DNA of 64,000 nt from an uncultured Clostridia bacterium (GTDB lineage: Bacteria; Bacillota; Clostridia; Christensenellales; CAG-314), in contig CALVLA010000003.1 in the NCBI GenBank assembly GCA_944336125.1, positions 1-64,000 of the forward strand. The letters run 5' to 3'. A model generated the notes under the pieces. It was given only the letters and a program-made list of their open reading frames with translations, was not told where the DNA came from and ran no database searches. Made by a program: the position numbers and the translations under genes. Below are positions 32,216-59,205 of this stretch, in pieces. The first letter of the stretch is position 1, and each line of letters begins with the position of its first letter.

Positions 32216-32500
32216 CATAAAAATTAAAGATTCCACAAACACAAAGATGAGGAACAGTAATTTTTTCGTTTTGGCACAGAGAGCTGCCGGCAGGTGTAAG
32301 GCAGTGCAAAACGTCTTTATGAACTCGCCTCGGAGTGCTTCGGCAGAATTTAAGTAGGTCGGAGCGGATGTCAACCGTTACAGTGACAGGATATAAGGTT
32401 TTTACCCGTATCCGGAGTGCGCCTTTTCGGCGAACAAGAGTGGTACCGCGGAAGTTACGGCTTTCGTCTCTTTTTTGAGACGAAAGCTTTTTTATTTTTC
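32216..32500 (+). ncRNA. T-box riboswitch, probable leucine specificity
   Basis: The T-box TGGTACCGCGG is at 32441-32451. Stem I parts: CAGAGAG at 32277-32283 and the apical AGGTGTAAGGC at about 32292. TGAACTCGC holds CTC (leucine) at 32324-32326 in the specifier position. A strong terminator, CTTTCGTCTC-tttttt-GAGACGAAAG with T7, spans 32461-32492. Readthrough should rise when tRNA-Leu is uncharged. Confidence 0.92.
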
Positions 32501-55083: not shown

Positions 55084-57036
55084 ATGAGCGAACAACCTCA
55101 AAACAAAATCGTTGAAGAAAATCAGGACGACTTTACCGAAGTGGTAAGGGTTCGTCGCGAAAAACTGCAAAACTTAATCGAAAACGGAAAAAATCCTTAT
55201 GAAATCGTCAGGTTTGACAAGGACAGCGATTCCAAATCAATCATAGAGTCCTTTGACGAAAATCAAGTCAAAAAAGTCAAACTCGCAGGCAGAATTATTT
55301 CACGCAGAATTATGGGCAAGGCAAGCTTTTGCCATATTCTCGACGGTGAAGGCACCATTCAGATTTACGTAAGGAAAGACATGATTGGCGACGAGCCTTA
55401 TGCCGAATTTAAAGCATGGGATATCGGCGATATCGTAGGCGTAGAAGGTGAAGTTTTCCGCACTCATATGGGAGAAATTTCCGTAAAAGCAGAAAAAATC
55501 ACTTTGCTTTCCAAATCGCTTTTGCCTCTTCCTGAAAAATTTCACGGTCTTAAAGACAACGATTTGAGATACCGTCAGAGATACGTCGACCTCATCGCGA
55601 ATCCTGAAGTAAAACGTACTTTTGTTTTGAGAAGCAAAATCATCAAATGCGTCAGAGAGTTTTTGGACAACCGCGGTTTTATCGAGGTTGAAACGCCTGT
55701 GCTTAATACTATCGCAGGCGGCGCTACAGCAAGACCTTTCATAACTCACCACAATACTCTCAACATCGATATGTACATGCGTATCGCGCCTGAACTTTAC
55801 CTCAAACGTTTGATTGTCGGCGGTTTTGAAAAAGTTTACGAAATCGGCAGACTTTTCAGAAACGAGGGTATGGACGTAAGGCACAATCCTGAGTTTACTA
55901 CTGTTGAGCTTTATCAGGCTTACGTGGATTTTCACGAAATGATGGACATCTCCCAGCAGATGTTCTGCTACATCGCGGATACAGTTTTGGGTACGAGAAA
56001 ACTCACTTACGGCGACGTGGAAGTGGACCTCGACAACTGGTCAAGGCTCACTATGCTTGAAGCCGTAAAACAATATACCGGTGTGGACTTTACAAACATG
56101 AACGACGAGGAGGCTGTCCAAGCGGCAGAAAAACTCGGCGCTCCTTGCGAGAAAAACAAAGAGACATGGGGCTACGCTCTTTACGAGGTGTTTGACAGAC
56201 TCGTCGAAGAACATCTCGTTCAGCCGACTTTCATTTATGACTATCCTGTAGAAGTTTCGCCGCTCGCTAAAAAATCCGTCAAAGACCCTCGCCTTACCGA
56301 AAGGTTTGAGTTCTTTATTACCGCAAGGGAAATGGGCAACGCTTTCAGCGAACTTAACGACCCTATCGACCAAAAAGAAAGGTTTATGGCTCAGGTAAAA
56401 CAGCGTGAAACAGGCGACGACGAAGCTCAGATGATGGATGAGGATTTTGTTACCGCTTTGGAATACGGTATGCCTCCTACAGGCGGTTTGGGCATCGGTA
56501 TCGACAGAATGGTTATGCTGTTCACTAACCAGTCGTCAATCAGGGACGTACTTCTTTTCCCTACAATGAAGCCAATCAAAAACTCAAACGCGGCAAACAG
56601 CGTTAAACCTAAGGCAGAAGAAAGCGTTGTGGACGAAGTTGCAGCAGAACCTGAAAAAATAGATTTTTCAAAAGTGGAAATTGAGCCGCTGTTTAAGGAT
56701 TTCGTGGATTTTGAAACTTTCAGCAAATCCGACTTCAGGGCTGTCAAGGTAAAAGCCTGCGAAGCAGTGCCAAAAAGCAAAAAGCTTTTGAAATTTTTGC
56801 TTGACGACGGAACAGGTGTAGACAGAGTTATCTTGAGCGGTATTCACGAGTATTACCAACCTGAAGAACTTGTCGGAAAAACTTGTATCGCAATCACCAA
56901 CTTGCCTCCGCGTCCTATGATGGGCATCGAATCGTGCGGTATGTTGATTTCGGCAGTACACAGCGAGCAAGGCAAGGAAAAACTTCATCTTTTGATGGTG
57001 GACGACCATATTCCTGCAGGAGCAAAGCTTTACTAA
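55084..57036 (+). CDS. lysS: lysyl-tRNA synthetase fused to a C-terminal tRNA-binding domain
   Basis: 650 residues, about 150 more than the usual class II LysRS. The body has the anticodon-binding OB fold ([17 protein letters not shown]), motif 2 ([26 protein letters not shown]) and motif 3 ([14 protein letters not shown]). A linker rich in A/E/V (505-530) joins a second module, [29 protein letters not shown] ... [39 protein letters not shown], which is the EMAPII/Trbp111-like tRNA-binding domain normally attached to methionyl-tRNA synthetase. The fusion should raise tRNA affinity. There is no frameshift or stop between the parts. Confidence 0.93.
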
Positions 57037-57090
57037 GGAGTTTGTCGTACTTTTGAAAAAAAGTTTTCATTAAAATTAAATTGTTTTATC

Positions 57091-57124
57091 AACGGGTGGT
57101 CATTTAAGACCGCCCGTTTTTAAT
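57091..57124 (+). terminator. terminator of greA-lysS
   Basis: ACGGGTGGTC-atttaa-GACCGCCCGT (one G-T pair) with T run. Confidence 0.8.
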
Positions 57125-57153
57125 TTGTTGACAATTCTCAGTTTGTGTCCTGT

Positions 57154-57182
57154 TGTTTTGCCGAAAAATCGAGTATTATAAA
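57154..57182 (+). promoter_or_regulatory. promoter of XRE regulator
   Basis: TTGTTT, 17 bp, TATAAA. Confidence 0.5.
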
Positions 57183-57202
57183 TACATAAAAGGAGTGCTT
57201 TT

Positions 57203-57685
57203 ATGAACCAAAAAGAAATAGGAAAATTTATATCGGACAGAAGAAAGGAAATGGGTTTGACGCAGGCGCAATTGGCAGAAAAACTCGGCGTAAGCGATAA
57301 ATCGGTGTCCAGATGGGAAAACGGAAAAACTATGCCGGACTTGTCTTTATATGAGCCGTTGTGCAAAATACTTCACGTCGGAATTTCGGAATTACTGTAT
57401 GCAAAAAAAATGACTGATTGTGAAAAATCGTCACAAGGTGAAAAATCGGCAATGAGTATTTTCAAAACAAAATCACGTCTTCAAACTTTCGGTATATTTA
57501 CGGAAATTCTTATTGTGGTAGGTATAATTATTACAGTTACACTTACAAAGTTTTTGGCACACACAACAACGCAGATGATTGTTACGTTATTATGCGGTTG
57601 CTTTGTTTGGTGTTTCGGTTTGGTTTTAAGAGTTAAAATCAGAAAAGCCGTTTGCGAAATCGAAAAAGATGAAAATTTTCATTAA
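57203..57685 (+). CDS. XRE-family regulator with membrane-spanning tail
   Basis: 160 residues. The helix-turn-helix is MGLTQAQLAEKLGVSDKSVSRWENGKTMPDLSLYEPLCKIL (about 16-57). After a charged linker come two spans (FGIFTEILIVVGIIITVTL and MIVTLLCGCFVWCFGLVLRV). Membrane-tethered XRE proteins of this kind occur widely in Firmicutes, and some sense the envelope; the target is unknown. AAGGAG precedes the ATG by eight bases. Codon use (ATA, TTA) is more AT-rich than in the neighbours, a mild sign of a different origin. Confidence 0.8.
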   Translation: MNQKEIGKFISDRRKEMGLTQAQLAEKLGVSDKSVSRWENGKTMPDLSLYEPLCKILHVGISELLYAKKMTDCEKSSQGEKSAMSIFKTKSRLQTFGIFTEILIVVGIIITVTLTKFLAHTTTQMIVTLLCGCFVWCFGLVLRVKIRKAVCEIEKDENFH

Positions 57686-57722
57686 AAAACTTATTTGTTT
57701 TAGTAAGCCGGTGTCGAGTATT

Positions 57723-57824
57723 ATTGTAGGCTAATTAAATAAAATCCAATTATTGCCCGAGACAAGGCGGCTTCATCCGCGACCGAAGATTGTAGGCTAA
57801 TTAAATAAAATCCAATTATTGCCC
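57723..57824 (+). repeat. 36-bp direct repeat pair with 30-bp spacer (CRISPR-like)
   Basis: The same 36 bases, starting ATTGTAGGCTAATTAAAT and ending CCAATTATTGCCC, occur at 57723-57758 and 57789-57824 without mismatch; the bases outside differ. The spacer between them is 30 bp and clearly more GC-rich than its surroundings. 36/30 is the spacing of many type II CRISPR arrays, and ATTGTAG is a familiar end of such repeats. No cas gene is in the window, and the second copy's end also forms part of a terminator hairpin, so a chance duplication is possible. Confidence 0.55.
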
Positions 57825-57845
57825 CTCAAAAGGGGCAATTTTTTT
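57816..57845 (+). terminator. terminator-like hairpin overlapping second repeat
   Basis: ATTGCCCCT-caaa-AGGGGCAAT and T7. The first repeat copy lacks the complementary arm. Confidence 0.75.
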
Positions 57846-57874
57846 GAGTTTTGATTTCAATCTTTTTATTGTTG

Positions 57875-57903
57875 TTGTTATTTCGGCAAAAAAATGTTAA
57901 AAT
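57875..57903 (+). promoter_or_regulatory. promoter of decarboxylase-tmk-holB operon
   Basis: TTGTTA, 17 bp, TAAAAT; the -10 ends six bases before ATG 57910. Confidence 0.6.
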
Positions 57904-57909
57904 TCACTT

Positions 57910-59205
57910 ATGAAGCCCATTTTGGATATGTTGAAAAACTACATTTTTTCAAACTCCGCCCGCTTTCATATGCCGGGACACAAGGGAGTTTCCTCGGAAA
58001 AACTGTTTGAAAGCGTTTTTCCCTGCGACATAACCGAATTGGACTTTTCGGACAACCTTTTGCACCCCGACGGCGTGATACAACAGTCGCAAAGTTACTG
58101 CGCTTCGCTTTGGAATGCGGAAAATTGCTTTTTCGTGACATGCGGGGCGACGGCGGGCGTTTTATCGCTGGTTTTTGCCGCCGAAGGAGCAGTGCTTGCC
58201 GAAAGGGCGAGCCATGTGAGTCTTTTCAACGGGCTGTCGCTTTCAGGCAAAAAAACTTATCTTTTAAACAATACTTTAAAAGACGGTGTGTTTTTGCCTG
58301 TTTCCGCAAATGACGTGGAGTTTGCTCTGGAAAAAAATCCTGACATAAAAACCGTTTTTCTCACTTCGCCAAATTATTACGGAAAATGTTGCGATTTGAA
58401 AAAAATTGCAGACGTATGCAAAAACAGAGGGGCAAAACTTTTTGTCGATTCGGCGCACGGAGCGCACTTTGCTTTTTCAAGTTTGCTGCCTGAGTGTGCG
58501 GCGGTCTATGCAGACGCTTGCGTTGTTTCAGCTCACAAAACGATGCCAGCGCTTACACAGGCGGCGGCGGTTTTGTGCAAGGCCGAAGCCGCGGAAAAAA
58601 TAAAGAATTTTTTAAATATTTTCAATTCGTCAAGTCCGTCATACCCGATTATGGCTTCTATAGAATACGCATGTGGAGAGTTTGAAAAAATAAAACTAAA
58701 CGGAGCCGACAAAAAACTTTTTGATTTGATTGAAAAGCTCAAAAAATCGGCAGGTCATGTGACTTTTGAAAACAACGACGATTTCACGCGTATAGTAGCA
58801 AAGGTGGGTGACGGTGAAAAAGCTTTTGAGTTTTTGAAAAGCAAAGGAATTTTTTGCGAGTTTTTCGACATGAACAGGGTGGTTGCCATTGTTTCACTTG
58901 CCGAAAAAGAGGGGAACATCAAAAGGCTGTTTGAAGCGTTTGCCCAAATGCCGTGTTTTGAAACAAAGCGCGGGGCAGACATTGTTTTTGAAAAAGTGAC
59001 ACAGGCGGATTTTTCGGACAAAGGAAAAAGCGTTTACCTTCCTTTAAACGAGGCGGAGGGCAAAATATGCGCAGAGTCGGCGGGGCTTTATCCTCCCTGC
59101 GTGCCGCTTTTCGTAAAAGGCGAAAAAATACATGATGCCGAAAAGCTGTTTTGTCAAAAAGATACTTTCGGTTTAAAAGACGGAAAAATCAAGGTGTGGT
59201 TATGA
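57910..59205 (+). CDS. Orn/Lys/Arg decarboxylase-family PLP enzyme
   Basis: 431 residues, the short YaaO-like form. ARFHMPGHKG is the family N-terminus; VTCGATAGVLSLVFA and HVSLFNGL bind the cofactor, FVDSAHGAHFAF holds the aspartate for the pyridine nitrogen, and VVSAHKTMPALTQAA has the Schiff-base lysine (about 207). Known members decarboxylate arginine, lysine or ornithine in polyamine synthesis; the substrate is not readable. The promoter ends six bases before the ATG and there is no ribosome site, so it is probably leaderless. It heads the same operon order as Bacillus yaaO-tmk. Confidence 0.88.
   Translation: MKPILDMLKNYIFSNSARFHMPGHKGVSSEKLFESVFPCDITELDFSDNLLHPDGVIQQSQSYCASLWNAENCFFVTCGATAGVLSLVFAAEGAVLAERASHVSLFNGLSLSGKKTYLLNNTLKDGVFLPVSANDVEFALEKNPDIKTVFLTSPNYYGKCCDLKKIADVCKNRGAKLFVDSAHGAHFAFSSLLPECAAVYADACVVSAHKTMPALTQAAAVLCKAEAAEKIKNFLNIFNSSSPSYPIMASIEYACGEFEKIKLNGADKKLFDLIEKLKKSAGHVTFENNDDFTRIVAKVGDGEKAFEFLKSKGIFCEFFDMNRVVAIVSLAEKEGNIKRLFEAFAQMPCFETKRGADIVFEKVTQADFSDKGKSVYLPLNEAEGKICAESAGLYPPCVPLFVKGEKIHDAEKLFCQKDTFGLKDGKIKVWL

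What the first reader, a model, noticed from the sequence alone, without database searches (positions are those of the whole stretch)
57723..57845. 36-30-36 bp perfect repeat pair resembling a minimal CRISPR array
Two identical 36-bp repeats enclose a GC-rich 30-bp unique segment. These are the exact dimensions of many type II arrays, and the ATTGTAG end is familiar from type II-C repeats. There are no cas genes nearby, so it could be an orphan or relic, or an array in miniature. The second repeat end doubles as a terminator arm.
Basis: partly seen in the sequence, partly recalled or inferred. Interest (0 to 1): 0.55.

Follow-up and report, generated by a model that had tools for sequence, protein, structure and literature searches.

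The report
CRISPR spacer inserted in wrong place
A bacterium's own CRISPR memory-writing enzyme appears to have pasted a 30-letter piece of the cell's own DNA into the wrong spot, just past an ordinary gene, creating a one-spacer CRISPR look-alike far from its real CRISPR array.

Summary
The 36-30-36 repeat is real and perfect (57723-57824), but it is probably not a relic of a lost CRISPR system. The same genome carries a type II-A locus on another contig: cas9, cas1, cas2, a csn2 frame and a 23-repeat array of 36-bp repeats and (20 of 22) 30-bp spacers. That repeat is unrelated in sequence to the finding's. Read on the minus strand, the outer edge of R2 is CCCTTTTGAG|G; the genuine leader ends CCCGTTTGAG|G. 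Nine of ten bases match, as at only 34 of 895,638 sampled positions, both sites included. The spacer matches a gene of the same genome over its 30 bp (27/30, 22 contiguous). Best reading: off-target spacer integration by the resident Cas1-Cas2 into a leader-like terminator hairpin, duplicating 36 bp of native sequence around a 30-bp self-derived spacer ('neo-CRISPR'). The process is known (Nivala 2018, recalled). The paper listings I saw showed no natural type II-A example outside an array. It is probably inert as immunity, since no specific pairing of the new repeat with the predicted tracrRNA was found. The PAM and an empty-site allele could not be tested.

The parts
57723..57758 (-). R1: leader-distal copy of the duplicated 36-bp target (neo-repeat)
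   Evidence: identical to R2; no further copy found in the genome
57759..57788 (-). 30-bp spacer; on the minus strand it reads 5'->3' from the leader-like side
   Evidence: 27/30 to the coding strand of a gene at G000:C9:14073-14102 (+), the last 22 nt contiguous; hit ends within 1 nt of the spacer edges
57789..57824 (-). R2: leader-proximal copy of the 36-bp target; its leader side carries one arm of the terminator
57825..57834 (-). leader-anchoring-like sequence CCCTTTTGAG directly abutting R2 (which begins with G)
   Evidence: 9/10 to the last 10 bp of the genuine leader, CCCGTTTGAG; 34 of 895,638 sampled positions match as well, this site and the genuine one included
57818..57839 (+). intrinsic-terminator-like hairpin behind the upstream gene, the insertion target (T run follows)
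   Evidence: fold
57203..57685 (+). HTH_3 (Cro/C1-type) regulator gene; the insertion lies between its stop codon and the terminator
   Evidence: ORF; Pfam
57910..59205 (+). Orn/Lys/Arg decarboxylase family gene downstream (neighbour, not part of the mechanism)
   Evidence: ORF; Pfam

Best explanation
This is an ectopic (off-target) spacer integration by the cell's own type II-A Cas1-Cas2 integrase. The minus strand of the terminator behind an HTH gene happens to read ...CCCTTTTGAG|G, a near copy of the end of the real CRISPR leader, ...CCCGTTTGAG|G. Inferred steps: Cas1-Cas2 carrying a 30-bp prespacer from the cell's own chromosome (or a close allele of it) attacked at that G. Its built-in ruler placed the second attack 36 bp away on the other strand. 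Gap filling then duplicated the 36 bp, leaving leader-like site | R2 | spacer | R1. Shown: the geometry, its identity to that of the resident array, the leader mimic at the correct edge, and the close match of the spacer to an own gene with matching boundaries. The product probably does nothing as immunity: no specific pairing of the new repeat with the predicted tracrRNA was found, and no sigma-70-like promoter was seen on the minus strand nearby. Such inertness would also explain why a self-matching spacer is tolerated.
For: (1) Resident cas9, cas1, cas2 and a csn2 frame with a 23-repeat array: identical 36-bp repeats, 20 of 22 spacers 30 bp and 2 of 22 29 bp. (2) 9/10 match to the last 10 leader bases plus G at +1, on the edge expected for a leader; at least 9/10 occurs at 34 of 895,638 positions of the own-genome sample (genuine leader and this site included), so about 8e-5 for either of two edges. 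The other edge matches 3/10. (3) TTTGAG|G ends the leader of 5 of 7 relatives' arrays read next to a cas9 homologue; one has TGTGAG and one does not fit. (4) The spacer matches an own-genome gene 27/30; the whole-genome search gave E 3e-5. The next best place in the 450-kb sample has 10 mismatches, and the best of 60 shuffles had 7. (5) In that sample only this site and the real array show 36+30 geometry. (6) For S. thermophilus type II-A, PMC6895254 (passages; section 23) reports that 10 bp of leader direct the first attack, that off-target sites mimic the leader-repeat junction with G preferred, and that a ruler sets the repeat length. (7) Weak: joined without the 66-bp unit, the stretch after the stop codon folds as one hairpin plus the terminator; the same hairpin can also form with the unit present.
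Against: The spacer is not identical to its apparent source (3 differences near one end), so the donor was another allele or one copy has changed. [quoted passage not shown] its last 8 bp match only 4/8, a score that 12.6% of window positions equal or exceed. Repeat positions 2-5 also differ from the real repeat. csn2 carries an in-frame stop in this assembly, so adaptation may be impaired today. The PAM is unknown: 8 scans of viral contigs, 6 of them with array spacers, gave no protospacer. No empty-site allele was found. One of the seven relatives' arrays lacks the leader motif. No second event was seen in about 36% of this genome or in 359,850 bases of four relatives, so it rests on one event.
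Confidence: 0.88

Rival explanations
1. A degenerate, orphan or relic CRISPR array of another CRISPR type (for example II-C), left after loss of its cas genes.
For: 36-30-36 geometry.
Against: The spacer matches the host chromosome. The leader-like edge matches the resident II-A leader. No further copy of the repeat was found with up to 3 mismatches in a 25-base core or by DNA search. The repeat includes an arm of a gene's terminator. No match in 60 relatives.
Confidence: 0.05
2. A repair accident (template switching or filler DNA at a break) that copied 30 bp of another gene and duplicated 36 bp, with no CRISPR enzyme involved.
For: A templated insertion flanked by a target duplication could arise this way in principle (inference; not tested).
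Against: It predicts no special lengths and no special flank. Observed are exactly the resident array's 36 and 30 and a 9/10 leader match at the outer edge.
Confidence: 0.04
3. A trans-acting antisense RNA: the transcript of the HTH gene carries, behind its stop codon, a segment complementary to the C9 gene's mRNA and regulates it.
For: The plus-strand spacer RNA is complementary to the C9 gene's mRNA about 70 nt inside its reading frame; predicted duplex -54.3 kcal/mol.
Against: It does not explain the 36+30 geometry, the flanking repeats or the leader match. The site is not at the ribosome-binding site, and the stretch is not found in the 60 relatives searched. Transcription of either partner is untested. 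It could still be a by-product of the integration.
Confidence: 0.03

Closest known systems
Non-canonical spacer integration / neo-CRISPR loci (Nivala, Shipman, Church 2018; recalled: the paper is not held; its reference and short descriptions seen in passages of PMC9456107 and PMC11788318)
   Same: Cas1-Cas2 inserts a spacer at a chromosomal site resembling the native CRISPR locus and duplicates the target as a new 'repeat'.
   Different: There, as I recall: type I-E in E. coli and putative natural cases in Yersinia pestis and Sulfolobus islandicus. Here: a natural type II-A case with a self-matching spacer, the leader-anchoring motif lying in a terminator hairpin.
Ectopic spacer acquisition in type II-A arrays of Streptococcus thermophilus, suggested also for S. 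pyogenes (PMC7999890; abstract, and Discussion)
   Same: Type II-A integrase apparently misled by sequences like the leader-anchoring sequence, in several cases with its terminal bases (AG or GAG).
   Different: Those events lie inside existing CRISPR arrays; this one is outside any array and made a new repeat. The paper also reports ectopic sites without the full GAG.
Off-target integrations of S. thermophilus Cas1-Cas2 in vitro (PMC6895254; passages; section 23)
   Same: Off-target sites mimic the leader-repeat junction; G preferred at the attack site; ruler-set repeat length.
   Different: In vitro, plasmid backbone, which the authors say likely represent half-site events; here a completed two-sided product in a natural genome.

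Membership tests
Off-target (ectopic) spacer integration by type II-A Cas1-Cas2 | Adaptation genes in the same genome | tested here: met
   cas9, cas1 (TIGR03639, type II) and cas2 as open frames of 1375, 294 and 107 aa; csn2 recognisable but with an in-frame stop
Off-target (ectopic) spacer integration by type II-A Cas1-Cas2 | Target duplication and insert lengths equal to the resident array's repeat and spacer | tested here: met
   36 and 30; array repeat 36, with 20 of 22 spacers 30 bp and 2 of 22 29 bp
Off-target (ectopic) spacer integration by type II-A Cas1-Cas2 | Leader-like sequence and G at the outer edge of one repeat | tested here: met
   CCCTTTTGAG|G vs CCCGTTTGAG|G, 9/10
Off-target (ectopic) spacer integration by type II-A Cas1-Cas2 | Repeat-like sequence (G on the other strand) at the leader-distal edge | tested here: inconclusive
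   last 8 bp match the real repeat 4/8, which 12.6% of window positions equal or exceed; terminal base T instead of C
Off-target (ectopic) spacer integration by type II-A Cas1-Cas2 | Insert taken from identifiable donor DNA with matching ends | tested here: met
   own-genome gene, 27/30, ends coincide to within 1 nt; 3 differences remain
Off-target (ectopic) spacer integration by type II-A Cas1-Cas2 | Donor flanked by the PAM of the resident Cas9 | tested here: inconclusive
   3' flank begins AAAACTC; the PAM could not be derived
Off-target (ectopic) spacer integration by type II-A Cas1-Cas2 | Empty site with one copy of the repeat in sister strains | tested here: inconclusive
Functional type II CRISPR array | Repeat complementary to a tracrRNA | tested here: not met
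   Longest exact complement to the predicted tracrRNA strand: real repeat 12 nt (0 of 500 shuffles reach it); ectopic repeat 9 nt on the minus strand (23 of 500 reach it) and 8 nt on the plus strand (93 of 500). Duplex energy is a weaker test: real -20.5 (shuffled mean -13.5, minimum -20.6), ectopic minus -16.0 (mean -13.2, minimum -22.3). The tracrRNA itself is predicted.
Functional type II CRISPR array | More than one spacer, or a repeat shared with another array | tested here: not met
   one spacer; no other copy found
Dispersed intergenic repeat (REP/MITE type) | Many copies in the genome | tested here: not met
   two copies only, 66 bp apart

The most novel reading that the evidence does not exclude
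The misplaced spacer has become a regulator. Written by CRISPR adaptation enzymes behind a regulator gene, it gives that transcript a 22-nt perfect antisense match to another gene of the same genome, so that spacer integration outside arrays would be a way of making new trans-acting antisense RNAs without Cas9.
Probability: 0.05. Interest if true: 0.9.

Novelty: new member of a known kind. Interest (0 to 1): 0.6.

Why it matters
If right, it is a clean natural footprint of CRISPR enzymes writing into the wrong part of a genome, in a type II-A system. It supports the idea that new CRISPR arrays can be born by off-target integration. It gives a simple search rule for more: a leader-end mimic followed by a target duplication of the resident repeat length. 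It also suggests why such events survive: without a usable repeat, even a self-matching spacer should be harmless.

Tried and rejected
PAM of the resident Cas9: 8 scans of the viral contigs, 2 with parts of the ectopic spacer and 6 with parts of 6 of the 22 array spacers, gave no match. The closest solved Cas9 by sequence (9jwk) was not followed to a PAM. 145 spacers from seven relatives' arrays, last 24 nt with up to 3 mismatches, against 1,015,808 held bases (matches in those array stretches themselves left out) gave no match. Whether relatives keep the site: in the three genus mates the best matches of the neighbouring gene are 48-52% identical, so I did not expect the noncoding site to align and did not try beyond.

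A better spacer donor elsewhere: four exact 21-mer hits in GC-rich proteobacteria have 7-8 mismatches over the 30 bp, so I take them as chance. Plasmids gave one weak hit, 92% over 25 bp at E 0.9. Phage records gave none. None of the 22 genuine spacers matches the held 36% of the genome with fewer than 5 mismatches; the two best, 5 and 6, are AT-rich spacers.

Another near-tandem repeat in the same genome, three terminators of period 73-74 at L026 from 3184, looked like a second event but lacks the 36+30 geometry. A 32-bp pair of period 69 at L034 4293 has a 37-bp gap and belongs to a run of several such repeats. In 359,850 bases from four relatives with cas9 no 36+30 site was seen. In PMC12216489 a search for this subject found only a reference.

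Full report
Observation. The window holds two identical 36-bp copies, R1 57723-57758 and R2 57789-57824, around a 30-bp segment, 57759-57788. They lie behind the stop codon of an HTH_3 gene (57203-57685), before an Orn/Lys/Arg decarboxylase gene (57910-59205). The end of R2 forms one arm of an intrinsic-terminator-like hairpin, 57818-57839. No other copy of the repeat was found in the 1.24-Mb, 20-contig, 94.6%-complete genome (search with 351 bases; 25-base pattern with up to 3 mismatches). The stretch has no match in 60 relatives, and an exact 30-base part of it is not found in the collection of genome contigs (that collection may leave out very near records).

The resident CRISPR system. A search for Cas1 found one match in the genome, on contig C4. 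That locus (L005) encodes Cas9 (1375 aa, TIGR01865 at 762 bits; REC and PAM-interacting domains), type II Cas1 (TIGR03639), Cas2 and a Csn2-like frame, so I class it as type II-A. csn2 carries an in-frame stop in this assembly. The array has 23 identical 36-bp repeats and 22 spacers, 20 of 30 bp and 2 of 29 bp. Beside cas9, L005 14553-14579 (+) reads like an anti-repeat (position); it shares 12 contiguous complementary bases with the genuine repeat, which 0 of 500 shuffles reach. The array repeat and the finding's repeat agree at 14 of 36 positions.

The leader mimic. In crRNA orientation the genuine leader ends ...GACCCGTTTGAG and the first repeat starts with G. On the minus strand of the window the sequence abutting R2 is ...GCCCCTTTTGAG, and R2 starts with G. 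The last ten bases agree at 9 positions; the opposite edge of the unit agrees at 3. In 450,459 bases of this genome, both strands, 34 of 895,638 positions match as well, 9 of them with G next; the 34 include the genuine leader and this site. Of 61 genomes searched with Cas9, 14 have a match, the own genome included. I read the neighbouring stretch in 8 of the 13 relatives: seven show arrays, of which five have leaders ending TTTGAG, one TGTGAG, and one (G039) does not fit; the eighth stretch shows no array. The commonest array period is 66 in all seven, and the repeat reads as 36 bp in the four where my script resolved its full length. So a 66-bp unit and TTTGAG|G look like common properties of this integrase group.

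The spacer. It matches G000:C9:14073-14102 at 27 of 30 positions with 22 contiguous at the 3' end. The match ends at the spacer edges to within one base: the neighbouring T is shared. The site lies about 70 nt inside a 504-codon reading frame without Pfam match, in an S/A/E-rich segment. From the sequence alone I take the two genes before it for a signal peptidase and a secreted protein; the second gave no Pfam match and the first was not tested. In 37 genomes searched, the frame has only partial matches outside its own place, at best E 6e-21. The three differences change one codon silently and one not (my reading), which fits a donor allele. Four outside hits to a 21-base part have 7-8 mismatches over the full 30 and are taken as chance. 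No viral-contig match to two parts of the spacer, no phage match, one weak plasmid match.

Interpretation. In S. thermophilus, type II-A Cas1-Cas2 attacks first at a leader-repeat junction read in about 10 bp of leader plus the first repeat bases; off-target sites mimic that junction, and a ruler sets the distance to the second attack (PMC6895254; passages, section 23). Ectopic acquisition at leader-anchoring-like sequences is described inside II-A arrays (PMC7999890; abstract, Discussion). Integration outside arrays is the subject of Nivala et al. 2018, which is not held: what I say of it is recalled, and its citation and short descriptions were seen in passages of PMC9456107 and PMC11788318. 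The finding fits this process step by step: leader mimic, G at the attack site, 36-bp duplication, 30-bp insert, self-matching donor. With the 66-bp unit taken out, the stretch behind the stop codon folds into one hairpin plus the terminator; this is weak support, since that hairpin can also form with the unit present.

Limits. The leader-distal edge is a weaker mimic: the last 8 bases match 4 of 8, which 12.6% of window positions equal or exceed, and the terminal base is T rather than C. The PAM could not be tested. There is no empty-site allele. The own genome was scanned for similar events over about 36% only, and 359,850 bases of four relatives gave none. Whether adaptation is still active is unclear because of the csn2 stop.

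Function. The neo-repeat shows no specific pairing with the predicted tracrRNA: its longest exact complement is 9 nt on the minus strand (reached by 23 of 500 shuffles) and 8 nt on the plus strand (93 of 500). By duplex energy it gives -16.0 (shuffled mean -13.2, minimum -22.3) on the minus strand and -11.4 (mean -11.6, minimum -18.8) on the plus strand; the genuine repeat's -20.5 is itself reached by the best of its 200 shuffles, so energy is the weaker test. No sigma-70-like promoter was found on the minus strand in 57000-58000. I therefore expect no guide RNA and no immunity. On the plus strand the spacer would be part of the HTH transcript and antisense to the C9 gene, predicted duplex -54.3 kcal/mol; expression is untested. 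[quoted passage not shown] That is the boldest open reading and I give it 5%.

Novelty. The kind is known; this is a natural type II-A member of it. Six searches of the paper library listed no natural type II-A integration outside an array. The listings were capped (3 to 25 titles shown of 3 to 325 papers), the library holds open-licence papers only, and I read no more than the passages and sections named here.

Noticed in passing
L005 8473-9178 (G000:C4, minus strand): csn2 of the resident type II-A locus has one in-frame stop codon in this assembly; adaptation may be impaired, or it is an assembly error.
   Followed up: partly
L026 from 3184 (G000:C4 about 23.1 kb): Three near-identical terminator hairpins in tandem, period 73-74, behind what looks to me like an SRP RNA gene (not tested); the first two units carry CCTCAAACAT, the complement of the TTTGAGG motif.
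   Followed up: partly
L060 2011-2655 (relative G020): The distal end of a type II-A array holds degenerate repeats and a gap of about 300 bases without a recognisable repeat.
   Followed up: no
window 32235-32474 (+): T-box leader (RF00230), the only Rfam match of the window at gathering threshold.
   Followed up: no
L058 about 561 (relative G039): Type II-A array whose outer edge does not end in the TTTGAG motif seen in five of seven relatives' arrays.
   Followed up: no
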